Program-made: the position numbers and the translations under genes
The notes under the pieces: model-generated
The model's input: only the letters and a program-made list of their open reading frames with translations
Told to the model about the DNA's origin: nothing
Database searches by the model: none
NCBI GenBank assembly: GCA_949296415.1
Contig: CASFQC010000012.1
Span: forward strand, 1 to 53,457
Source of the DNA: an uncultured Bacteroides sp.
GTDB lineage: Bacteria > Bacteroidota > Bacteroidia > Bacteroidales > Bacteroidaceae
Direction of reading: 5' to 3'
Length of the DNA stretch: 53,457 nucleotides
In this document: positions 16,413-53,457 of the stretch, one piece after another
How the letters are laid out: each line of letters opens with the position of its first letter
Position numbering within the stretch: position 1 is the first letter of the stretch

Positions 16413-17111
16413 TCAGCTGTCGGCTCTTGCCAGAGCCAGCATGCTGACGCTTGTGCCTTCCGCCTGTTTCAGAGCGTCGGCGCAGGCGGTCAGGGTGGCT
16501 CCTGTGGTCAGCACGTCGTCAATGAGCATGATGTGTTTTCCCCTTATGGCGGAAGGGTTGTCCAGTCTGAATACGTGGCTCATGTTGTTCCAGCGTTCGG
16601 CTACGGTGAGGTGTGTCTGCGAGCCGGTGTCCTTCACCCTGCACAGGCAGCCGTCCAGTACGGGCAGTCCGGTGACTTGCGCTACGCCTTGCGCCAGACA
16701 TGCGCTCTGGTTGTATCCCCGTTTCCTCTGTTTCCGTCTGTGCAGGGGTACGGGCATCAGCGCGTCCACTTCGCTGAAGAATCCGCAGGCGGCCAGCTCT
16801 CCTCCCATGAGCCGGCCCATTGCCACTCCCAGATCTTTGCGCCCGCCGTACTTCATCAGTCTGACCAGCCTGCTGTAGGGGCTTCCCTTGTGATAATAGA
16901 GAAAGGCGGTGGCACGTGCTACAGGCACCTTTCCCCAGAACATCTGCTCTATGTACGGATCCTGGTCCTGCCAGTATCCGGTGCGTGGCAGGCGGCATTT
17001 GCATGCGGTGCACAAGGTGTCTTCCCCTTCCTGCAATGCTGAGCCGCATACCGGGCAGCAAGGCGGAAAGAACAGCGACAGCAGGCGGTGTATGTTTAGT
17101 GCGAGGGACAT
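16413..17111 (-). CDS. ComF-family phosphoribosyltransferase-like protein
   Basis: A 232-aa protein with an N-terminal double zinc finger (CCPVCGSAL and CTACKCRLP) and a C-terminal type I phosphoribosyltransferase motif, IMLIDDVLTTGATL. The RRKQRKRGYNQSACLA block is also typical. ComF proteins are associated with DNA uptake in naturally competent bacteria, but Bacteroidales carry it widely and its function there is not settled. It is tightly packed after the inositol phosphatase gene (22 bp). Confidence 0.93.
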   Translation of the reverse strand: MSLALNIHRLLSLFFPPCCPVCGSALQEGEDTLCTACKCRLPRTGYWQDQDPYIEQMFWGKVPVARATAFLYYHKGSPYSRLVRLMKYGGRKDLGVAMGRLMGGELAACGFFSEVDALMPVPLHRRKQRKRGYNQSACLAQGVAQVTGLPVLDGCLCRVKDTGSQTHLTVAERWNNMSHVFRLDNPSAIRGKHIMLIDDVLTTGATLTACADALKQAEGTSVSMLALARADS

Positions 17112-20481: not shown

Positions 20482-20656
20482 AGAGCCTGTTTGATTTTTC
20501 CTTTTTAAGGTTTTTATCCAGTCTGTTCCCAAGCCTTTTTCCGGCCTTTTCCCCGTTCCCCTTTGTCACGTAGCCCGCTACGCTTCTCATGATAACGGGA
20601 AAACATTCTCGGAAAAACCTCTCAAAACAGTACTGGGCAAAAATTAAACAGGCTCT
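20482..20656. mobile_element. MITE-like palindromic element, complete copy
   Basis: About 175 bp bounded by near-perfect terminal inverted repeats: AGAGCCTGTTTGATTTTT at the left and the complement of AGAGCCTGTTTAATTTTT at the right (1 mismatch in 18). The whole element is an imperfect palindrome around the central CGTAGCCCGCTACG (about 20569-20582). A clearly related copy starts at 53296. It contains no gene and lies between the divergent xre-cupin and EamA genes. I could not establish a target-site duplication. Confidence 0.75.
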
Positions 20657-20738
20657 TACCGCTGGCAAATGTAAGATATTCTTAGCCCGTTTGCAACAAA
20701 ATGCGGAGAAATGTGTACGGAAATCGGCCTGTGTTGCG

Positions 20739-20746
20739 TACTTTTG
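20739..20746 (+). promoter_or_regulatory. -7 box (TACTTTTG) of the EamA gene
   Basis: TACTTTTG matches TAnnTTTG and lies 23 bp before the chosen ATG at 20770, so the leader is short. This supports that ATG over an in-frame Met upstream of the box. Confidence 0.55.
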
Positions 20747-20769
20747 CGGCCGTTTTAAACAGAAGTGGT

Positions 20770-21696
20770 ATGTCTAAGTTCAGTCTGAAAGGTCATGGCG
20801 CCATGTTGGGTGCCAATGTGATGTGGGGGCTCATGTCGCCCCTGGCCAAGTTTGTGATGATAGGCGGTGCGGTCAGCCCGCTGGTGGTGACGGATTTGCG
20901 TGTGTTCGGCGCCATGGTGCTGTTCTGGGTGGTGTCGTTCTTCTGCAAGCCTGAGCATGTGGGACATAAGGACATGGCCCGGCTGTTCGGCGCCTCGCTG
21001 CTTGCCATTGTGTTCAACCAGGGTTGTTTCATATCGGGGGTGGGGCTTACGTCGCCTGCCGACGCATCCATCATCACCACCAGCATGCCGTTGTGGGCCA
21101 TGGTGCTGGCCGCCTTCTTCCTGAAGGAGCCTATTACGGGCAGGAAGGTGCTGGGCATAGCCGCCGGAGCCACGGGCGCGCTGCTGCTCATTCTGGGCAG
21201 CCGGCATGGCGGACAGCAGGGGGCGGACAACAGTGTGCTGGGTGACTTGCTGGTGTTGCTGGCCCAGCTGAGCTATGCCTCGTACATCGTGCTGTTCAAG
21301 GATTTTGTGGGACGCTATTCGCTGGTCACCATCATGAAGTGGATGTTCACTTACGCCTTCATCTGCCTGCTGCCTTTCTCCGCACCCGACCTGATGAGTG
21401 CCGACTGGGCCGCGCTGGGCATGCGCGAGGTGGGTGCGCTGGCGTTTGTGGTGGTGTGCGCCACTTTCCTTAGCTATATGCTGATTGTGGTGGGGCAGAA
21501 GGAACTGAGGCCTACCGTGGCCAGCATGTACAACTATGTGCAGCCTGTGGTGGCCTGTCTGGTGGCCGTGTGGTGGGGCATGGACAGCTTCAACCTGATG
21601 AAGGGCATGGCCGTGGCGCTCATCTTCGGGGGAGTTTATCTGGTCACCATCAGCCGGAGCCGCAAGGATATGGAGGCGGCGGGAAGGGAAGTGTGA
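20770..21696 (+). CDS. EamA/DMT-family transporter
   Basis: A 308-aa inner-membrane protein with about ten hydrophobic segments forming two EamA repeats. The first begins GANVMWGLMSPLAKFV and the second near LGDLLVLLAQLSYASYIVLFKDF. These drug/metabolite transporters export amino acids, nucleotides or drugs; the substrate here is unknown. The start MSKFSLKGHG lies just past a promoter box. The gene is monocistronic as far as I can see, since a 460-bp repeat follows. Confidence 0.93.
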   Translation: MSKFSLKGHGAMLGANVMWGLMSPLAKFVMIGGAVSPLVVTDLRVFGAMVLFWVVSFFCKPEHVGHKDMARLFGASLLAIVFNQGCFISGVGLTSPADASIITTSMPLWAMVLAAFFLKEPITGRKVLGIAAGATGALLLILGSRHGGQQGADNSVLGDLLVLLAQLSYASYIVLFKDFVGRYSLVTIMKWMFTYAFICLLPFSAPDLMSADWAALGMREVGALAFVVVCATFLSYMLIVVGQKELRPTVASMYNYVQPVVACLVAVWWGMDSFNLMKGMAVALIFGGVYLVTISRSRKDMEAAGREV

Positions 21697-21742
21697 GGAG
21701 GATGGCATATCTGGCCTGTGTGCGAGGTGTGCCTTCCGCCTG

Positions 21743-22202
21743 TTGACATTCTGACACTTTGCTTTCTTTTAACACGGAGAATCGCTTGTTTCCGGCCAAG
21801 GGAAGGGGTGGTGGAAAAGAACGCAGGATTTTTTCGCCTTTCTTCTTGTACCTTAGGATGATAGCCTGGATTTTAACACTTCACGACCCGTCGGAAAATG
21901 CGGAAAAATCTGTCCGGAATGCCGTTTTCCGCAGGGCGGAGACGGACAACATATCATCAGGAACCGGGCAATAGGTCATCCGCCGGCGGATGACAGGTCG
22001 CCAGCTGGCGGAAAACAGGTAGCTTGCGTGACGAAAACGGCTTTCTGTCTGCCGTTTTATTAACATAAAGAAACATACTGGCCTGTTTTACGCTTATTTT
22101 TAATCTATTTAAACGGATGTATCCTTACATTATCCGTTTTTCTTCCTGCCTTTGAAAAAGTGCCGGTTAGCGGAATGGCCGGAAACGTCGCTTTATGTAA
22201 GC
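21743..22202 (+). repeat. 460-bp dispersed intergenic repeat, copy A
   Basis: Recognisable by ACACTTTGC...TTTAACACGGAGAATCGC at the left, GGAAAAGAACGCAGG, TTTTAACACTTC, GGAAAA.GCGGAAAAA, short inverted repeats such as GGTCATCCGCCGGCGGATGAC, and TATTAACATAAAGAAACA toward the right. Copies B (29840-30300, reverse) and C (45724-46184, forward) share this order. The right end points to the DUF2723 gene, whose -7 box lies about 150 bp downstream. A reading frame (21759-21974) stays open through the left half. Confidence 0.8.
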
Positions 22203-22348
22203 AAAATGGCGGATATGCTGTCTTTCTGCCGATGCGGAGACGGGCATTTCCATGCCGACCTTATGGCACAAGTCCGAAATAAGCGGATAAAAATCTTAAA
22301 AAGGACAATTTAAACAGTATATGAATCGGAGGCTACGGGCTAATTCAC

Positions 22349-22356
22349 TATCTTTG
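22349..22356 (+). promoter_or_regulatory. -7 box (TATCTTTG) of the DUF2723-deacetylase pair
   Basis: TATCTTTG fits TAnnTTTG. It is 92 bp upstream of the DUF2723 start codon and downstream of repeat copy A. Confidence 0.55.
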
Positions 22357-22447: not shown

Positions 22448-25400
22448 ATGAAACGATACAGCACCGTAAACAACCTCATGGGTTGGATTACTTTCCTTAT
22501 TGCGTCGACGGTCTACTGCATGACCATCGAACCTACCGCAAGCTTCTGGGACTGCGGGGAGTTCATCACCACCGGTTACAAACTGGAAGTGGGCCATCCG
22601 CCCGGAGCACCGTTCTTCATGCTGATGTCCAACTTCTTCACCCAGCTGGTTTCCGACCCCTCACAGGTGGCCAAGATGGTAAACTACATGAGCGCGCTGA
22701 TGAGCGGCGCCTGTATCATGTTCCTGTTCTGGACCATCACGCACCTGGTGCGCCGTCTGGTGGTCAAAGAACGCGAAGGCGTCAGCAGCGGACAGCTGGT
22801 GGCTATCATGGGCAGCGGACTGGTGGGCGCGCTGGCCTATACCTTCAGCGACACTTTCTGGTTCTCGGCCGTAGAGGGTGAGGTCTATGCCTTCTCCTCG
22901 CTGTTCACCGCCGTGGTGTTCTGGCTCATACTGAAGTGGGAAGATGTGGCCGACCAGCCCCACAGCGACCGTTGGCTGGTGCTCATAGCCTATCTTACCG
23001 GTCTGTCCATAGGTGTGCATCTGCTGAACCTGCTGTGCCTGCCCGCTATCGTGCTGGTGTATTATTATAAGAAAGTGCCCGATGCCGACGCCAAAGGCTC
23101 TCTCCTGGCTCTGGCGGTATCCATGGTCCTGGTGGCTGTGGTGCTCTACGGCATGGTGCCCGGCATAGTGAAGGTGGGCGGATGGTTCGAACTGCTGTTT
23201 GTCAACGTGCTGGGTTGCCCGTTCAACACCGGCGTCATCATCTATGTCGTGGTGATGGCCGCCAGCCTCATATGGGGAGTGTACGAGAGCTATCAGGACC
23301 GCAACAAGATGCGCATGGCCTGCTCCTTCGTGCTCTCCATAGCCCTGCTCGGCATACCTTTCTACGGCCACGGAGCCAGCGCGGTGGTGATAGGCGTTGT
23401 GGTGCTGGCCTTGCTGTGGCTCTACGTCAGCCCGCGCACGCAGGCACGCCTCAAGCAGAGGTTCCGTCTGAGCGCACGCGCCATGAACACAGCCATGTTG
23501 TGTACCATGATGATAGTCATAGGCTACTCTTCCTACGCCCTCATCGTGATACGTTCCACCGCCAACACCCCCATGGACCAGAACTCGCCCGAAGACATAT
23601 TCACCCTGGGCGAATACCTGGGCCGCGAGCAGTATGGCACACGCCCCCTGTTCTACGGGCCGGCCTACAGCTCCAAGATAGCCCTTGACGTGGAAGACGG
23701 CTACTGCGTGCCCCGCGTAAGCTCCAGCCAGACCAAGTACGTGCGCAAGCCCAAGGACACTCCCGATGAGAAAGACCGGTACATAGAGATACCCGGACGC
23801 ATAGAATATGAATACGCGCAGAACATGTTGTTTCCCCGCATGTACAGCAGCCTGCACACCCAGTATTACCAGAGCTGGATGGACATAAAGGGACGCGATG
23901 TGAGCTACGACGAATGCGGCACGCCGGTGACGGTGAATATCCCCACGCAGTGGGAGAACATCAAGTTCTTTTTCAGCTATCAGCTGAACTGGATGTACTG
24001 GCGCTACTTTATGTGGAACTTCGCCGGACGGCAGAACGACCTGCAAGGCGGAGGAGAGATAGAGCACGGCAACTGGATTACCGGCATATCCTTCATTGAT
24101 AACTGGCTCATAGGCGACCAGTCGCAACTGCCTACCGAGCTGAAAGAGAACAAGGGACACAACGTATTCTACTGTCTTCCCTTGCTGCTGGGCATGCTGG
24201 GCCTGTTGTGGCAGGCCTACCGGGGACAGAAAGGCATACAACAGTTCTGGGTGGTGTTCTTCCTGTTTTTCATGACGGGCATAGCCATCGTGCTTTACCT
24301 GAACCAGACCCCCCAGCAGCCGCGTGAACGCGACTACGCCTACGCAGGCTCCTTCTACGCCTACGCCATATGGATAGGCATGGGCGTGGCCGGACTGGTC
24401 CACCTGCTGCATCGATACCTCAAGATGAAGGAACTGCCTGCCGCCATTGCCATGTCGGCGCTGTGCCTGTTGGTGCCCATACAGATGGCCAGCCAGACTT
24501 GGGACGACCACGACCGCAGCGGACGTTATGTGTGCCGCGACTTCGGCCAGAACTACCTGATGTCATTGCAGGAGAGTGGCAACCCCATCATCTTCACTAA
24601 CGGAGACAACGACACCTTCCCCCTGTGGTATAACCAGGAGACGGAAGGCTGCCGCACCGATGTGCGCACCTGTAACCTGAGCTATCTGCAGACAGACTGG
24701 TACATTGACCAGATGCGCCGCCCGGCTTACGACTCTCCCTCGTTGCCCATTAACTGGAGCCGTAAGGAATACATGGAAGGCACCAACGACTACGTGCCCA
24801 TACGGCCCGAATACAAGCAAAGCATAGATGCCCTCTATGCGGAAGCCGCGAAAGAATCGACTGCAGGAAACCGGGAGGTGATGATAAACGTGCAGAAAGA
24901 GTTCGGAGACAATCCCTACGAATTGAAGAACATCCTGAAATACTGGGTACGCAGTAAGGACGAGAAACTCCGTGTCATTCCTACGGACAGCATTGTGGTC
25001 AAGGTGGACAAGGACGCCGTGCGCCGTAGCGGGATGCTCATACCGGGCGACTCTATTCCCGACTACATGCACATCTCTCTCAAAGGCAAGCATGCTTTGT
25101 ACAAGAGTGAGCTGATGATGCTTGAGATGCTGGCCGAGACCAATTGGGAGCGTCCGCTTTACATTGCCGTCAGCGTGGGGATGGAGAACCGCCTGAATCT
25201 GGACAACCACTTCATGCTTGAAGGTCTGGCCTACCGCTTCACGCCGTTCGATACATCCAAGACCGGCGTGAGCGTGGACAGCGAAAGGATGTACGACAAT
25301 CTGATGCACAAGTTCAAGTTCGGAGGCATAGACAAGCCCGGCATTTACATTGACGAGAATGCTATGCGCATGTGCTATTCTCACCGCCGTATCTTTGCCC

Positions 25401-25792
25401 AGCTGGCCATGCAACTCGCGTCTGAAGGCAAGACCGACAAGGCCAGGGAGGTGCTGGACTATGCTGAGAAGATGATTCCCGCCATGAACGTGCCTTATGA
25501 TTGGGATAACGGTGCCTATCAGATGGCCGGTGTCTATGCGGAGATTGGCGATACGGACAAGGCCGGACACATTCTGAAGGCTTTGGCGGACAAGGCTGTG
25601 GAATACTGTAACTGGTATCTCAGCTTGGATACGAAACGCTTCTACATTTCCGCCGGTGAGTTTGAAAGACACTGGAGGGCGCTGAACATGGAAGTCGAAC
25701 TGATGAAGAGATGCCAACTGCCGGAAGCCGGCCAGTACGATGAAAAGGCAAACCAACTGCAACATCTTTATAATAGCCGCCTGCCACAATAA
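22448..25792 (+). CDS. DUF2723 / glycosyltransferase family 117 membrane protein
   Basis: A 1114-aa integral membrane protein with many hydrophobic segments and a large soluble C-terminal part with repeat-like helices (from about residue 800). The hallmark lies near the N-terminus: FWDCGEFITTGYKLEVGHPP, an acidic first-loop motif like that of GT-C enzymes that use lipid-linked sugars. It probably transfers sugar to protein or glycan at the membrane; the acceptor is unknown. The stop overlaps the start of the polysaccharide deacetylase gene (TAATG), so the two are translationally coupled. Confidence 0.92.
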   Translation: MKRYSTVNNLMGWITFLIASTVYCMTIEPTASFWDCGEFITTGYKLEVGHPPGAPFFMLMSNFFTQLVSDPSQVAKMVNYMSALMSGACIMFLFWTITHLVRRLVVKEREGVSSGQLVAIMGSGLVGALAYTFSDTFWFSAVEGEVYAFSSLFTAVVFWLILKWEDVADQPHSDRWLVLIAYLTGLSIGVHLLNLLCLPAIVLVYYYKKVPDADAKGSLLALAVSMVLVAVVLYGMVPGIVKVGGWFELLFVNVLGCPFNTGVIIYVVVMAASLIWGVYESYQDRNKMRMACSFVLSIALLGIPFYGHGASAVVIGVVVLALLWLYVSPRTQARLKQRFRLSARAMNTAMLCTMMIVIGYSSYALIVIRSTANTPMDQNSPEDIFTLGEYLGREQYGTRPLFYGPAYSSKIALDVEDGYCVPRVSSSQTKYVRKPKDTPDEKDRYIEIPGRIEYEYAQNMLFPRMYSSLHTQYYQSWMDIKGRDVSYDECGTPVTVNIPTQWENIKFFFSYQLNWMYWRYFMWNFAGRQNDLQGGGEIEHGNWITGISFIDNWLIGDQSQLPTELKENKGHNVFYCLPLLLGMLGLLWQAYRGQKGIQQFWVVFFLFFMTGIAIVLYLNQTPQQPRERDYAYAGSFYAYAIWIGMGVAGLVHLLHRYLKMKELPAAIAMSALCLLVPIQMASQTWDDHDRSGRYVCRDFGQNYLMSLQESGNPIIFTNGDNDTFPLWYNQETEGCRTDVRTCNLSYLQTDWYIDQMRRPAYDSPSLPINWSRKEYMEGTNDYVPIRPEYKQSIDALYAEAAKESTAGNREVMINVQKEFGDNPYELKNILKYWVRSKDEKLRVIPTDSIVVKVDKDAVRRSGMLIPGDSIPDYMHISLKGKHALYKSELMMLEMLAETNWERPLYIAVSVGMENRLNLDNHFMLEGLAYRFTPFDTSKTGVSVDSERMYDNLMHKFKFGGIDKPGIYIDENAMRMCYSHRRIFAQLAMQLASEGKTDKAREVLDYAEKMIPAMNVPYDWDNGAYQMAGVYAEIGDTDKAGHILKALADKAVEYCNWYLSLDTKRFYISAGEFERHWRALNMEVELMKRCQLPEAGQYDEKANQLQHLYNSRLPQ

Positions 25793-28670: not shown

Positions 28671-28765
28671 AATGGTGTCTTTTTATAAAAGTATATAAGG
28701 AATTCCATTGTGCGGGAGTCCGGACCTCATGGCGTGACTGTTTCCGCACACGCTACAAATATAGT

Positions 28766-28848
28766 GAAAGGCGAACGCCGCGACGGCAGGAAGCAATGCT
28801 TCCGGATGTCATGGCTGAGCCGCATCCTATATTCGCATGGCAAATATA
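28766..28848 (-). promoter_or_regulatory. duplicated promoter-leader, copy 1 (KduD-like gene)
   Basis: The -7 box TATATTTG (28841-28848, minus strand) is followed by a leader containing GCCATGACATCCGGAAGCA. The 83-bp segment aligns without gaps to 29681-29763; I count 68 identical positions. Both copies precede minus-strand genes. Confidence 0.65.
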
Positions 28849-28929
28849 CTAAAAAGTATGTCTGTCTGTATCTTGCGGACAGCTTTATTTTTTCCTTTTT
28901 AACTGTCCGGACTTTCGCCGGGTCGCATG

Positions 28930-29619: not shown

Positions 29620-29680
29620 TTGCAGTCAATGGTTCTTCTTCGGGGGCTGTCCTTCTTCGGACAGTGCGCGTGGAGATAGG

Positions 29681-29763
29681 GAAAGGCGCGTGCCGCGACA
29701 GGGGGAAGTGTTGCTTCCGGATGTCATGGCCGAACCGCATCCTGTCTTCGCAGGGCAAAGATA
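29681..29763 (-). promoter_or_regulatory. duplicated promoter-leader, copy 2 (DUF5715 gene)
   Basis: The -7 box TATCTTTG (29756-29763, minus strand) is followed by a leader with GGCCATGACATCCGGAAGCA, matching copy 1 at 28766-28848 without gaps. It ends about 60 bp before the DUF5715 start codon. Confidence 0.65.
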
Positions 29764-29839
29764 GTGCAAAATGTGTGTAGTGCCAAAAGGGAGCCGCCCT
29801 TTCTCTTCTGACAGAATCATCCTGTTTTCCTCATTTCCC

Positions 29840-30300
29840 CTGTCATAAAGATGTTAAAATGCTGTTTCTGCTTACCGGTACTTTTCCATAATACGCCCGG
29901 GAATCGGTTGTTGTAAGGATATGTCTGTTTAAATATATTAAAAATGAGCCTATGACAGGCTGTTTTGTTTCATTGTGTTAATGAAATGGTGGACAGGAAG
30001 CCGTTTCCGTCATGCAGGCGACCCGTTTCCCGTCGGCTGGCAACCTGTCATCGGCCGACGGATGACCTGTTGCCAGCTTCCTGATGATATATTGTCCGCT
30101 TCCGTGCTGCGTAAAACGGGCTTCCAGGCGGATTTTTCTGCGTTTTCTGAGGATATTTGAAGTGTTAAAATTTGACTTATCAGTCTAATAATCAATATAA
30201 AAGGCTGAAAAATACTGCGTTCTTTCCCACCAAGCCTGCACTGGGTCGGAAATACGCGATTCTCCATGTTAAAGGAATGCAAAGTGTCAAAGTGACAAAA
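29840..30300 (-). repeat. 460-bp dispersed intergenic repeat, copy B (reverse orientation)
   Basis: The reverse complement shows the same order of blocks as copies A and C: GTCACTTTGACACTTTGC, AACATGGAGAATCGCG, GAAAGAACGCAGTA, TTTTAACACTTCAAA, GGACAATATATCATCAGGAA, GGTCATCCGTCGGCCGATGAC, CATTAACACAATGAAACA. Its right end faces the DUF5715 promoter-leader on the minus strand. The frame in the left half is open, as in the other copies (within 30010-30375 on the minus strand). Confidence 0.8.
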
Positions 30301-30467
30301 CCTGTCTGTCGGCATGACCTGTAAGCGCGCGTCCATAAGATGCCGTGCAGACGGAAGAAGGGCTGACGGTGGCATTGCCGGAACCCACCAACGGCATCGC
30401 GCCTGTGCTGCGCATAAGGAAATGAAAATAGTAGGACAGGCAAGGCCGGATTCTTCATATAATCAGT

Positions 30468-42792: not shown

Positions 42793-43319
42793 TCATCCGT
42801 ATTTTACTGCATCCCTTTCGGTTAAATAGCTTGAAGTGGTGTTGTGCAGGGTTAAAACGTCTTGCGGATTACCGGTTAGCGAACCTTCCCATAATATGGT
42901 ATCTGTTTCATGGGGAAATGTTTCGTAGTGCGGATTCAATAACCTGTTGTATGACAGGTCCAGCGACCGTATCACGTACCTTGACAGGTCAGGAAACTCC
43001 GTGAGGCTGTCACCAGACAGGTCATAGTAATCCATCACCACGTCGGGGCGGACGTGGCGGAGCTGTTCCAGCTTGGAAAAGCTTTTGTCCTGTGCTGCTT
43101 CCGGATGTCATACTCCTCCGGGTCGTAGCCGTAGGGGTTATAGCCATCGTTTCCCTGTGCGGACATCCAGTCCACTCTTTTCCCTTCCGCAGGGCGCAGT
43201 AGGGGCAGCCCCGCAAAATCTCTCTGATTATTCTCTTTTTGGCCATAGACTTTTGGTTTTAAGGTTGCTTTTTTCATGGTTCTTGTCAGGAAACGTTTTT
43301 TTGCCATATCGGCAGACAT
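42793..43319 (-). pseudogene. collapsed second copy of the HExxH/LRR module
   Basis: The segment from about 42940 to 43109 matches the LRR lipoprotein gene (44380-44549), and the segment from about 43110 to 43285 matches the start of the HExxH gene (45494-45660). The junction is at CCGGATGT/CATACTCC. Relative to the intact locus, about 945 bp are missing, which joins the 5' end of one gene to the middle of the other out of frame. Two short frames remain (42793-43041 and 43035-43319). This copy keeps GYNPYGYDPEEY and, separately, MDYYDLSGDSLTEFPDLSRY. It is non-functional. Confidence 0.8.
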
Positions 43320-43790: not shown

Positions 43791-44625
43791 CGATTATTGT
43801 CGCCTCTATCTGTTCCATAATCTTCAGTGCGGCTTCCCTTTCTCCAAGGTGTGCAAGACACATGGCTTTGACATCTTTTACAGAGGAATAGTTTTTAGCC
43901 CGGAGGGATGCGTCCAGCAGGCGGACGGCCTTTCGCAACGAGTCCGGGCTGTCCATGTAATATTTTATGTAGGTCATAGCCGTTTCAGACAGCAGACTGG
44001 ATGCGCTTAGCCGTTTTCTGTCTGTGACGCCCGGAAAACAAACGAGACATCTTAACGGTTCTTTGTCGGCCAGTCCTTCGCTGACTACGGTATCGGCTTG
44101 CAGGTAGAAAAGAAGGCTTGGACAAAAATAACGGTTATGCGATACGTCAAAATATTGCGACACGTCTGCCCATACGTTATAGTCCAGCATGTTGTGGGCC
44201 AAGACAAGCCTGCGTAGCGGTTTCCGGCAAAAGAACTCCAACAGCGAGTTGTGCGACACGTCCAGTTCCTCCAACATCGGAACGTCCAGCTTGTGTATCT
44301 CTAATTTCCCTTCCAACCGGTTGTAGGACAGGTTCAGCTTCTCCAGTCCGGTCGGCAAGTACCGGGGAACAAACGTGTCCAACTGGTTGTGCGACAGGTC
44401 CAGCGAACGGATCACGTACCTTGACAGGTCGGGGAACTCTTTTAGGCTGTCGCCGGAGAGGTCATAGTAATCCATCACCGAGTCGGGACGGACGTGGTGG
44501 AGACGTTCCAGCTTGGAAAGGCTTTTGTCCTGTGCTGCTTCCGGATGTGTGCAAGATACGACGGATAACGCGGCTGTCAGACATAGGAGAATTTTAGTAT
44601 TTATGGAAGTCATTGCGATATTCAT
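43750..44625 (-). CDS. leucine-rich-repeat lipoprotein, C-terminally truncated by a frame change
   Basis: A 291-aa protein with a lipoprotein signal (lipobox VVSC) and about five LRR units such as RSLDLSHNQLDTFVPRYLP and LEKLNLSYNRLEG. A helical TPR-like part (ALKIMEQIEATIIERKK) follows, then a sudden stop within about 10 codons after a (CTTT)4 tract on the plus strand (43775-43791). The reading frame continues in 43353-43790. It overlaps the stop of the HExxH gene (44594) by 32 bp, so the pair is coupled. In a toxin-immunity reading this would be the immunity or receptor-type partner; that is inference. Confidence 0.75.
   Translation of the reverse strand: MNIAMTSINTKILLCLTAALSVVSCTHPEAAQDKSLSKLERLHHVRPDSVMDYYDLSGDSLKEFPDLSRYVIRSLDLSHNQLDTFVPRYLPTGLEKLNLSYNRLEGKLEIHKLDVPMLEELDVSHNSLLEFFCRKPLRRLVLAHNMLDYNVWADVSQYFDVSHNRYFCPSLLFYLQADTVVSEGLADKEPLRCLVCFPGVTDRKRLSASSLLSETAMTYIKYYMDSPDSLRKAVRLLDASLRAKNYSSVKDVKAMCLAHLGEREAALKIMEQIEATIIERKKESNLSMAAS
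43775..43791. repeat. CTTT tetranucleotide tract inside the LRR gene
   Basis: Four tandem CTTT units followed by C (AAAG on the coding strand). With four units the LRR frame ends soon after the tract. With three units the frame continues into the downstream TPR-like segment, giving a protein of about 420 aa. A change in unit number by slippage could therefore switch the protein length. Confidence 0.7.
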
Positions 44626-45550
44626 TTAAGGCGTCACGGAAATAATCCATGTTGTACTTTCCAATATATTCATGCATTTTGTTGTCATCATATTGCGGTT
44701 TCATGTCATTTGTAATGAAAATGCTGATAAATTCTTCCGAATATCCTCTGTTCTTCATAACATTGTATATTATACTTCCAGGTATGTTCTTTAAACCTGT
44801 TTTTTTTGAAATATCATTGCAGATACTATTGTAAATGGCAAAATGGCGGGCATGCATGGATTCATGGGTCAATATGACAACCAAGGCCTCCTCTGCTGTC
44901 CTGACTGTACTCCAATCAAAGCCTGTACTGTCAGCGGTGGCATTAGCTGTTGTCCATCCGTTTTCATCAATGCATTTTTCATTGAATGTGATGGAATATA
45001 GTCCGGTGTTAGGGTCATATTTTGTTATTGCAGCGGAATCTTTCTCGTCAGCTTTAGTGAATGTGTCTATTTGCAATACCATACTTACGTATCCTCTGTC
45101 AAAATACACCAACAGTTCTTTCAGTACAGAGTTGCTTTCCATTATTTTCATCAGTTGCCTTTGGAATGCTGGCTTTTCCTCCATGTCTTTAAAGTAGAAG
45201 TGATTCTTGTCCGTCACGTCCACCCCGTCCACCCCGTCCTTTTGCGGATTATGACCTCCTCCCACTTCCGTATCATACACATCATAATAAGGACTGTTGT
45301 AGTAGTAATAGTCTTCCCCGTAGATATCAAACCATATGTCACTCTCGTCTCCGGGATATTCCCTGTCAATGAAGGGGTTGTCCGTGTCTCCCCAAGGCGG
45401 GATTCCGCTGCTCCATCCCCCGCCGTCATCTCCGGAGTCGTAGTATCCGTAGACCGTCACTTCGGGCAGCGTGCCCCCGTCCTTTATGTAGCCGTACTCC
45501 TCCGGGTCGTAGCCGTAGGGGTTATAGCCGTCGTTTCCCTGTGCGTACAT
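44594..45550 (-). CDS. HExxH-containing protein of unknown function (candidate toxin-like)
   Basis: A 318-aa protein from MYAQGNDGYN. The N-terminal third is low-complexity and rich in Gly, Asp and Tyr (GTLPEVTVYGYYDSGDDGGG). The C-terminal part contains VVILTHESMHARHFAIYN, an HExxH zinc-site candidate (His229, Glu230, His233). The frame is open upstream to 45666 with no ATG; an ATGGCC at 45630 would be in frame with it after one extra A in the A6 tract, and the decayed copy supports MAKK-ITREDFAGL as the ancestral start. Sequence is AT-richer than its neighbours. No signal peptide. Not a recognised family. Confidence 0.65.
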   Translation of the reverse strand: MYAQGNDGYNPYGYDPEEYGYIKDGGTLPEVTVYGYYDSGDDGGGWSSGIPPWGDTDNPFIDREYPGDESDIWFDIYGEDYYYYNSPYYDVYDTEVGGGHNPQKDGVDGVDVTDKNHFYFKDMEEKPAFQRQLMKIMESNSVLKELLVYFDRGYVSMVLQIDTFTKADEKDSAAITKYDPNTGLYSITFNEKCIDENGWTTANATADSTGFDWSTVRTAEEALVVILTHESMHARHFAIYNSICNDISKKTGLKNIPGSIIYNVMKNRGYSEEFISIFITNDMKPQYDDNKMHEYIGKYNMDYFRDALNEYRNDFHKY

Positions 45551-45657
45551 CCTGTCCTCTCTTTTCCCTTCCGCAGGGCGCAGCAGGCGCAGCCCCGCAA
45601 AGTCTTCTCTGGTTATTCTTTTTTGGCCATAGACTTTTGGTTTTAAGGTTGCTTTTG

Positions 45658-45665: not shown

Positions 45666-45723
45666 CACTATTCCTTTCATAATTGTCCGCTGATTTCTTA
45701 TGTTATGTAGCATGTTTCCCGCC

Positions 45724-46184
45724 TTTTGTCACTTTGACACTTTGCATTCCTTTAACACGGAGAATCGCGTATTTCCGACGGGGTGCAGGCCCGGTGGAAA
45801 AGAACGCAGGGATTTTCAGCCTTTCCTGTTGTACTTTAGGAAGATAAGCCGAAATTTAACACTTCAAACGCCCTCAGAAAACGCGGAAAAGTCCGTCCGG
45901 AAATCCGTTTTTCACACGGCGGAGGCTGGCAACAGGTCATCGGGAAGCTGACGGCAGGTCATCAGTCGGCTGCCAATGGGTTGACAGCCGGCGGGGAATG
46001 GGTTGTCCGCACGGTGAAAACGGCTTCCCGACCTGCTTGTTATTAACATAAAGAAACAGAGAAGCCTTATTTGCAGTTTTGTTTAACGTATATAAAGGGA
46101 TTTATCCGTACATTGTCTGTTTTTCCGGCCTGTTTTGAAAAAGAGACGGTAAGCGGAAACGGAATTTTCCCGTCTTTGTGACAG
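45724..46184 (+). repeat. 460-bp dispersed intergenic repeat, copy C
   Basis: Contains TTTGTCACTTTGACACTTTG, TTTAACACGGAGAATCGCG, GTGGAAAAGAACGCAGG, TTTAACACTTCAAACG, GGCAACAGGTCATCGGGAAGC, TTATTAACATAAAGAAACAG and GGTAAGCGGAAACGG in the same order as copies A and B. The right end faces the mtnN gene, whose -7 box lies 85 bp downstream. The left-half frame is open (45700-45951). Confidence 0.8.
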
Positions 46185-53281: not shown

Positions 53282-53295
53282 AGTTGTCTGATTTT

Positions 53296-53457
53296 AGAGC
53301 CTGTTTAAATTTTCCTCTTTAAGATTTTTATTCAGCCTCTTTTGAGCCTCTTTTCGGCCTCTTTTCCTGTTCTTATTCGTCACGTAGCCCGCTACGCTCC
53401 TCATAACAACCGGAAAATATCCTCGGAAACAGCCCTCAAAATAAGGCTGAGCAAAAT
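53296..53457. mobile_element. MITE-like palindromic element, second copy (cut by window edge)
   Basis: Starts AGAGCCTGTTTAAATTTTCC and contains the same central CACGTAGCCCGCTACGCT as the copy at 20482-20656, followed by related sequence to the edge of the window. The right terminal repeat is not in the window. It begins 14 bp upstream of the AAA+ start codon, so the promoter of that gene must lie within or beyond it. Confidence 0.7.

What the first reader, a model, noticed from the sequence alone, without database searches (positions are those of the whole stretch)
21743..22202. Family of about 460-bp intergenic repeats in three copies
Copies at 21743-22202 (+), 29840-30300 (-) and 45724-46184 (+) share the same ordered blocks over their whole length, at near-identical lengths (460, 461, 461 bp), but are diverged. 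No transposase is seen. The structured centre (inverted repeats such as GGTCATCCGTCGGCCGATGAC) and the constant size suggest a defined element or RNA family rather than random similarity.
Basis: seen in the sequence. Interest (0 to 1): 0.7.

Follow-up and report, generated by a model that had tools for sequence, protein, structure and literature searches.

The report
Dispersed intergenic elements with 22-bp arrays
The three repeats are real and belong to a large family of roughly 460-bp DNA elements that sit between genes in this gut-type bacterium and some relatives; each carries a short array of 22-letter repeats whose wording differs between the lineages compared while the spacing stays the same, which hints at an unknown DNA-binding partner.

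Summary
In detail: the three copies align over 460 columns without a gap, 71-74% identical pairwise. They are 3 of 68 leader matches in this genome. Copy number is patchy in the genus: 33, 14, 10 and fewer, none in 6 of 18 chosen genomes. Anatomy: a leader (first 86 positions without a gap in 29 copies; then a 10-bp insertion in 10 of them), an array of about four 22-bp units, an AT-rich part and a tail. In 133 kb of this genome, strong self-similarity at lags 10-40 is almost only at 22 bp. Unit letters are alike among copies of a genome but at chance level between the two genomes compared. Copies lie between genes, mostly divergent ones, outside promoter cores. Sites are not shared between two related genomes, and one site is empty in relatives. 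The RNA reading is not supported. No terminal inverted repeats were found. Closest known: BrickBuilt of Porphyromonas gingivalis, same build, other ends. Most likely a dispersed DNA platform bound by a lineage-specific protein; binder and mover are unknown.

The parts
21740..22205 (+). element copy 1 (the finding)
21740..21844 (+). copy 1, 105-bp leader window (TGACAnnnTGACAC ... GAGAATCGC ... GGTGGAAAAGAACGCAG)
   Evidence: model R1 match 21742-21843; alignment
21933..22052 (+). copy 1, 22-bp array (includes GTCATCCGCCGGCGGATGAC)
   Evidence: lag 22, up to 64% over 66 positions; Tandem Repeats Finder period 22 at 21973-22020
29840..30301 (-). element copy 2
30197..30301 (-). copy 2, leader window
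   Evidence: R1 match 30199-30299 minus
30014..30104 (-). copy 2, 22-bp array
   Evidence: lag 22, up to 61%
45723..46184 (+). element copy 3
45723..45827 (+). copy 3, leader window
   Evidence: R1 match 45725-45825
45915..46026 (+). copy 3, 22-bp array
   Evidence: lag 22, up to 67%; TRF period 22 at 45963-46005
22349..22356 (+). TATCTTTG, a -7-type promoter core (motif TANNTTTG recalled) before the gene at 22448, outside the element
   Evidence: (99 bp before the start codon)
20701..21696 (+). upstream neighbour gene of copy 1, EamA-like transporter; ends 43 bp before the element
22448..25792 (+). downstream neighbour gene of copy 1, TMEM260-like (PF11028)

Best explanation
It is a non-coding, dispersed intergenic DNA element of about 460-540 bp with constrained geometry: a leader, an array of about four 22-bp units, an AT-rich part and a tail. 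SHOWN: tens of copies, no predicted gene inside, sites between genes and outside promoter cores, sites not shared between the two related genomes compared, one orthologous site that is empty in relatives, and a 22-bp unit whose letters are alike among the copies of one genome and unrelated to those of the other. INFERRED: it works at the DNA level. The 22-bp period (two helical turns) puts repeated sites on one face of the helix, so that a lineage-specific protein binds them cooperatively, together with a leader complex. The element is copied to new intergenic sites by an unidentified machinery acting in trans. Between divergent promoters the bound array may also shape or insulate transcription.
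For: Spacing: 460 bp without a gap at 71-74% identity; the first 86 leader positions without a gap in 29 copies, and the only length change in the first 112 nt is an insertion of exactly 10 bp, one helical turn, in 10 of them. Period: best self-shift 22 in 26 of 29 copies and 44 in the other 3; 22 or 44 in 14 of 20 further copies and in 18 of 20 G755 copies; in 133 kb, 10 places at lag 22, one each at 11, 12 and 33, none at the 27 other lags of 10-40. Words: unit similarity within G000 0.509 (null 0.357; 40 of 49 copies that passed the array filter), within G755 0.522 (null 0.381; 18 of 20), between them 0.371 (null 0.360), while leaders are 54% identical between them. Dispersal: 68, 33, 14, 10 ... 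0 leader matches among 18 chosen genomes; empty site in 8 of 14 relatives; two G529 copies share 534 bp with sharp ends and unrelated flanks; of 92 G000 and 36 G755 neighbour proteins one plausible common gene, on the opposite side. Location: 28 of 43 fully called G000 copies between divergent genes against 11 of 79 gaps, or 31% of intergenic bases; TANNTTTG in 17 of 17 downstream and 13 of 15 upstream spacers tested, 4 times in 13,630 bp of element on both strands.
Against: No binding protein and no mover were found. No terminal inverted repeat above control (mean z 0.66 against 0.5) and no clear target duplication at the one pair with sharp ends. Free-standing 22-bp arrays without leader occur (L163:16947-17071; relatives), so array and element are separable. 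Dyad symmetry of the units is not general: G755 consensus no better than shuffled (p 0.76), G000 borderline (p 0.07-0.08), four free arrays p 0.06-0.5; only G529 and G488, words picked by eye, are perfect (p 0.002). Covariation about the dyad in G000 is modest (z 3.7, best of 23 axes in one of two registers; 2.0 in the other), and G755 has similar z on unrelated axes (3.5 and 3.4). A word shared within a genome could be a founder effect. Only two genomes were compared for words with many copies, and the compared arrays were chosen for lag 22. Copies are old (64% mean leader identity in G000), so no recent move was seen there.
Confidence: 0.5

Rival explanations
1. A classical miniature inverted-repeat transposable element: a deleted insertion sequence moved in trans by an IS transposase that recognises its terminal inverted repeats; the array is a passenger minisatellite.
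For: Dispersed, non-coding, intergenic, patchy copy number, sharp ends in one pair, empty site; the known BrickBuilt case is described this way (PMC4596501).
Against: Ends show no inverted repeat above an internal control; TGWCA-N3-TGWCA is at the 5' end in 16 of 29 copies and, inverted, at the 3' end in 0 of 29; no clear target duplication (two copies); 460 bp without indels at 26-29% divergence is not what a decaying passenger would be expected to show. The Y1 (IS200/RAYT) family PF01797 is in 1 of 12 copy-rich genomes, weakly, and in 2 of 10 copy-poor ones; other transposase families were not searched.
Confidence: 0.2
2. A structured non-coding RNA or cis-acting RNA leader family.
For: Inverted stems in the array are enriched (40 against 6-12 after mononucleotide shuffling, own copies); folding z-scores average about -2.4; the leader can form a hairpin, 86% of cells paired.
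Against: Both strands fold alike, G:T and A:C mismatches nearly equal, no covariation in the leader hairpin, no Rfam family, elements hold almost no TANNTTTG cores and lie upstream of them.
Confidence: 0.07
3. A vertically inherited regulatory module (enhancer-like upstream region) that serves divergent promoters of particular genes.
For: Two thirds of fully called copies lie between divergent genes, outside both promoter cores; spacing is constrained.
Against: Neighbours are hardly shared between G000 and G755 (three G000 proteins with any match, one at 57% identity, two at 22-39%); the pyrG site is empty in 8 relatives. Across other fetched loci five locus pairs had a match; one was strong (82% over 187 residues, L026 and L072, not followed up), one was the EamA gene in G007 some distance from its element.
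Confidence: 0.15
4. A relic of iteron-type replication origins (22-bp iterons plus AT-rich part) scattered in the chromosome.
For: 22-bp direct repeats next to an AT-rich repeated part, own letters per lineage, constant geometry; the likeness to plasmid iterons is recalled.
Against: Copy 1 has no blastn match in 72,556 plasmid or 50,697 phage records and GAGAATCGCGTATTTCSG none in viral contigs; distant relatives could be missed. No initiator gene was sought. Dozens of chromosomal copies.
Confidence: 0.05

Closest known systems
BrickBuilt of Porphyromonas gingivalis (Klein et al. 2015, PMC4596501; abstract, passages, section 5 and part 1 of 2 of section 7 read)
   Same: Leader + tandem short repeats of about two helical turns (23 nt there, 22 here) + tail; 19 copies there, tens here; intergenic; no transposase inside; arrays without leader or tail also exist.
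   Different: BrickBuilt has 12-nt inverted ends like IS5-family ISPg1/ISPg9 and a repeat number from 1 to 22.8, and the paper reports it only from P. gingivalis and P. gulae. Here no inverted ends were found, the near-full copies of this genome have about four units and nearly one length, the core occurs in several genera, and unit letters differ between genomes under a conserved leader. BrickBuilt sequences were not fetched, so homology of leader and tail was not tested.
REP/BIME elements with RAYT transposases (recalled)
   Same: Chromosomal, intergenic, palindromic, many copies, dispersed.
   Different: Much longer, 22-bp array; no PF01797 match in 11 of 12 copy-rich genomes searched (several of them incomplete).
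Iterons of plasmid origins (recalled)
   Same: Arrays of about 22-bp units with their own letters beside AT-rich DNA.
   Different: No plasmid match for copy 1, tens of chromosomal copies, no initiator sought.

Membership tests
MITE (miniature inverted-repeat transposable element) | terminal inverted repeats | tested here: not met
   29 copies: 5' end against reverse complement of 3' end mean z 0.66, internal control 0.5; G529 pair z 0.9 and 0.7. The 3' end is less well defined than the 5' end
MITE (miniature inverted-repeat transposable element) | target-site duplication | tested here: inconclusive
   none clear at the two G529 copies with sharp ends; other copies not tested
MITE (miniature inverted-repeat transposable element) | non-coding, short, no transposase, dispersed | tested here: met
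MITE (miniature inverted-repeat transposable element) | parent IS in the same genome | not tested
   only PF01797 was searched
BrickBuilt | leader, tandem repeat of 22-23 nt, tail | tested here: met
   (22 bp)
BrickBuilt | ends GAGACCTTTGCA...TGCAAAGGTCTC | tested here: not met
   ends read directly against the table in PMC4596501
BrickBuilt | variable number of repeat units | tested here: inconclusive
   near-full own copies align over 424-438 bp of copy 1 and the window copies have no length difference; but L010 is some 50-70 bp longer (by eye) and L038, L041 and L042 hold 7, 5 and 4 exact GAGTTAACTC
BrickBuilt | sequence homology of leader and tail | not tested
   BrickBuilt sequences were not fetched
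structured RNA family | covariation or strand-specific pairing | tested here: not met
structured RNA family | transcript | not testable with these tools
   no expression data
REP/RAYT | Y1-type transposase in the genome | tested here: not met
   1 of 12 copy-rich genomes, E 3e-6; G000 none, but its assembly is 80% complete

The most novel reading that the evidence does not exclude
A conserved scaffold with an exchangeable address: a chromosomal element family in which leader and 22-bp geometry are kept, while the 22-bp word is replaced as a whole in each lineage and shared by its copies, because it co-evolves with a trans-acting DNA-binding protein whose specificity switches (a rewriting intergenic binding code between promoters).
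Probability: 0.3. Interest if true: 0.85.

Novelty: new variant of a known kind. Interest (0 to 1): 0.6.

Why it matters
Tens of copies of one element stand beside ordinary genes in this genome and some relatives, with a geometry that is kept when the letters change. If a protein reads the 22-bp word, it would be a genome-wide, lineage-specific organiser or mover that is not yet named; it would also show that BrickBuilt of P. gingivalis is one case of a wider intergenic architecture. The word shared within a genome makes the partner directly testable by DNA pull-down.

Tried and rejected
First alignment of copies was made without turning the minus-strand loci and was discarded; repeated turned. 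The gap-free 105-column alignment uses windows of equal length; the wider alignment (checked) shows that only the first 86 positions are gap-free and that 10 of 29 copies have a 10-bp insertion after them, so the last part of model R1 is out of register for those ten. Coding origin: each of the six frames of the leader has stops in 19-47 of 49 G000 copies, and variability (29 copies) has no clear codon phase (0.77, 0.69, 0.64 bits); against this, one frame is open in 18 of 20 G755 copies. RNA: see rivals. Inverted ends: not above control. IS200/RAYT mover: not supported. An apparent shared site near an ABC-F-like gene in G458 (L167) has another immediate neighbour gene. GAGAATCGCNTNTTT in an order-wide sample: 54 of 295 genomes, mostly one hit, and the reversed control also hits some, so only genomes with several hits were followed; family sample 88 of 399 (plus and minus hits can be two arms of one hairpin). 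Other-genome places (54, both arms of hairpins counted, so some face the wrong way): lag 22 best in 24 only; for I kept the 28 with lag 21-23 or 44, which selects for arrays. Literature: the searches showed no description outside P. gingivalis/P. gulae in the held library, judged from listings; the library lacks most subscription papers. Gene names pyrG, typA, rpsO and ABC-F are given by eye from the protein letters, not from a family search; the -7 box motif is recalled.

Full report
CHECK OF THE OBSERVATION. The three segments align over 460 columns without any gap column; pairwise identities are 73.7, 71.3 and 73.9%, 286 of 460 columns are identical in all three, and flanks fall to 36-51%. 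BLAST of copy 1 against the own genome (G000, 2.81 Mb, 131 contigs, 80.5% complete) returns 71 matches at E<=10, nine of them nearly full length.

SIZE OF THE FAMILY. I took 29 copies from the best 30 loci (L027 was dropped because it is another piece of the copy in L018). A sequence-only model of their leader (R1, 105 positions) finds 68 matches at E<=1e-3 in G000; the 29 training copies match by construction. In 17 other genomes of the genus, chosen as near relatives or because they had core hits, it finds 33 (G755), 14 (G007), 10 (G783), 7, 6, 5, 4, 4, 3, 2 and 1, and none in six. The core GAGAATCGCNTNTTT recurs in several genera of the family: 24 hits in G000, 19 in G510, 16 in G321, 14 in G357, 10 in G396, 7 in G529; 88 of 399 genomes have any (plus and minus hits can be two arms of one hairpin). 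Exact TTTAACACGGAGAATCGC is in five stretches of public Bacteroidales MAGs. Copy 1 has no match in plasmid or phage records, and the core with flank has none in viral contigs.

ANATOMY. In order, on the leader strand: TGWCA-type sites eight bases apart (lag 8 is the top lag of the 5' part; strict pair in 16 of 29); TTTAACACGGAGAATCGC or, in a second subfamily, TTTAACGCAAATGCG; a T-rich and an A-rich arm (TATTTCCGGCC ... GGTGGAAAAGAACGC) that could pair; ATAAGCC..ATTTTAACACTTCA; the array; two or three AT-rich sites (TGCATAAATATGCA or TTAACATATTTATACATT); TTTGAAAAAGTGCCGGTAAGCGGAA; an ending like TTTTAACATCTTTATGACAG in part of the copies. The first 86 leader positions are gap-free in 29 copies; then 10 of the 29 have an insertion of exactly 10 bp, one helical turn, and there is no other length change in the first 112 nt. 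In some other genomes the leader arms form a near-perfect hairpin (L102, L117).

THE 22-BP ARRAY. Self-shift analysis gives 22 as best lag in 26 of 29 copies and 44 in the other three. In 20 further G000 copies, 22 or 44 is best in 14; in 20 of the 33 G755 matches in 18. Over window plus four 20-kb stretches of G000 (133,457 bp), places with at least 60% identity over 66 positions number 10 at lag 22, one each at 11, 12 and 33, and none at the 27 other lags from 10 to 40. Eight of the ten lie in elements (by position), one is a free array and one is an 11-bp array. Unit consensus in G000 is about GGACAACAGGTCATCCGCCGGC, in G755 about CGCCGCACGCGT plus variable bases. Similarity of units is 0.509 within G000 (null 0.357), 0.522 within G755 (null 0.381), and 0.371 between them (null 0.360), counted on 40 of 49 and 18 of 20 copies that passed a lag-22 filter; leaders are 54% identical between the two genomes, 64% and 74% within. 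Read by eye, still other words stand in G529, G488/G460, G636 and the buffalo-rectum MAGs. Dyad symmetry is perfect in two words picked by eye (G529, G488, p 0.002), borderline in G000 (p 0.07-0.08), absent in G755 (p 0.76) and unclear in four free arrays (p 0.06-0.5). In G000 the expected axis GGACAACA|GGTCATCC is the most complementary one and has the highest covariation in one register (z 3.7 of 23 axes; best z 2.0 in the other register; another run without wrap-around gave 3.4 on a different axis); G755 reaches 3.5 and 3.4 on unrelated axes. So the period is general, the palindrome is not.

RNA OR DNA. RNAfold z-scores of 29 copies are -2.35 on the leader strand and -2.63 on the other. Among inverted stems, G:T and A:C mismatches are 18 and 18 in own copies and 28 and 20 in 28 foreign copies selected for arrays. 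The leader hairpin does not covary above shuffles. No Rfam family. The leader is not coding in G000; one frame is mostly open in G755 (18 of 20), which I take as chance in a conserved stretch. This speaks for constraint at the DNA level.

LOCATION. A simple codon-based gene finder trained on the window puts no gene across any of 69 copies (49 G000, 20 G755). Of the 43 G000 copies with both neighbours called, 28 lie between divergent genes, 14 between tandem genes and one between convergent genes; in G755 9, 7 and 0 of 16. Background in the 133 kb of G000: 11 of 79 gaps of at least 30 bp are divergent, 31% of the intergenic bases, elements included. The TANNTTTG core (recalled as the Bacteroides -7 box) is in 17 of 17 downstream spacers and 13 of 15 upstream spacers tested, but only 4 times in 13,630 bp of element on both strands. 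So copies stand upstream of promoter cores and leave them intact. In G007, one copy (L031) looks as if between convergent genes (by eye).

MOBILITY. The divergent gene/pyrG pair (pyrG named by eye) that carries a copy in G000 (L020) keeps both flanks close together in 9 of 14 relatives; in 8 of these the gap holds no element by eye, and in G622 it holds a free 22-bp array with other letters. The other five did not keep both flanks close together on one contig. G000 and G755 share at most one plausible neighbour gene (57% identity, on opposite sides) among 92 and 36 neighbour proteins; two more G000 proteins match at 22-39%. In a wider comparison five locus pairs had a match, one of them strong (L026 and L072, 82% over 187 residues) and not followed up. 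Two G529 copies share 534 bp with sharp ends in unrelated flanks, without a clear target duplication. This supports dispersal. Against a classical MITE: no inverted ends. Against a RAYT-type mover: PF01797 in 1 of 12 copy-rich genomes and in 2 of 10 copy-poor ones.

READING. I take it as a dispersed DNA element with a constrained nucleoprotein geometry. The absence of indels over 460 bp at 26-29% divergence in the window copies, and a leader whose only length change is one helical turn, are the strongest signs that spacing matters. The 22-bp period with exchanged letters suggests a lineage-specific binder. That binder, the mover and any effect on transcription are inferred, not shown. A founder effect (all copies of a genome descend from one progenitor with its word) explains the shared word without a binder, and cannot be excluded.

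KNOWN RELATIVES. BrickBuilt of P. gingivalis (PMC4596501: abstract, passages, section 5 and part 1 of section 7 read) has the same leader-array-tail build with 23-nt units, 19 copies, intergenic sites and promoter activity in E. coli; its ends are IS5-like and differ from ours. PMC5771137 (passages only) treats BrickBuilt as a MITE. I therefore say it is built like BrickBuilt, and is not shown to be a member. The searches showed no other description in the held library.

Noticed in passing
window 20484-20655 and 53292-53457 (cut by the contig end): Another dispersed repeat (174-bp match, 76% identical) with inverted ends AGAGCCTGTTT...AAACAGGCTCT at the first copy, which looks like an ordinary MITE.
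   Followed up: no
window 28761-28861 and 29676-29776: 101-bp repeat, 79% identical, on both sides of the DUF5715 gene next to element copy 2.
   Followed up: no
window 42941-43319 and 44381-45656: Duplicated, partly broken genes (repeats of 168 and 111 bp, 88% and 94% identical); relatives of the 318-aa protein at 44594-45550 (no Pfam family) also stand beside copies L004 and L005, so gene and element were probably duplicated together.
   Followed up: partly
L166:19431-19814: About 384-bp array of an 11-bp unit (GTACGCAAACG), roughly 30 units, near element L029.
   Followed up: no
L163:16947-17071; L145, L162, L169, L172, L176, L179, L180, L182: Free-standing 21-23-bp arrays without leader in intergenic regions of G000 and its relatives, each with its own letters, for example upstream of typA, pyrG and the TMEM260-like gene.
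   Followed up: partly
L165:14332-17637 (G000 C3): The segment 14332-16305 is inverted relative to its neighbour at 17057 compared with several relatives, and an element stands at the junction (about 16430-16920).
   Followed up: no
L026 and L072: A segment near element L026 matches at 82% over 187 residues in L072, from a genome of another family of the order.
   Followed up: no
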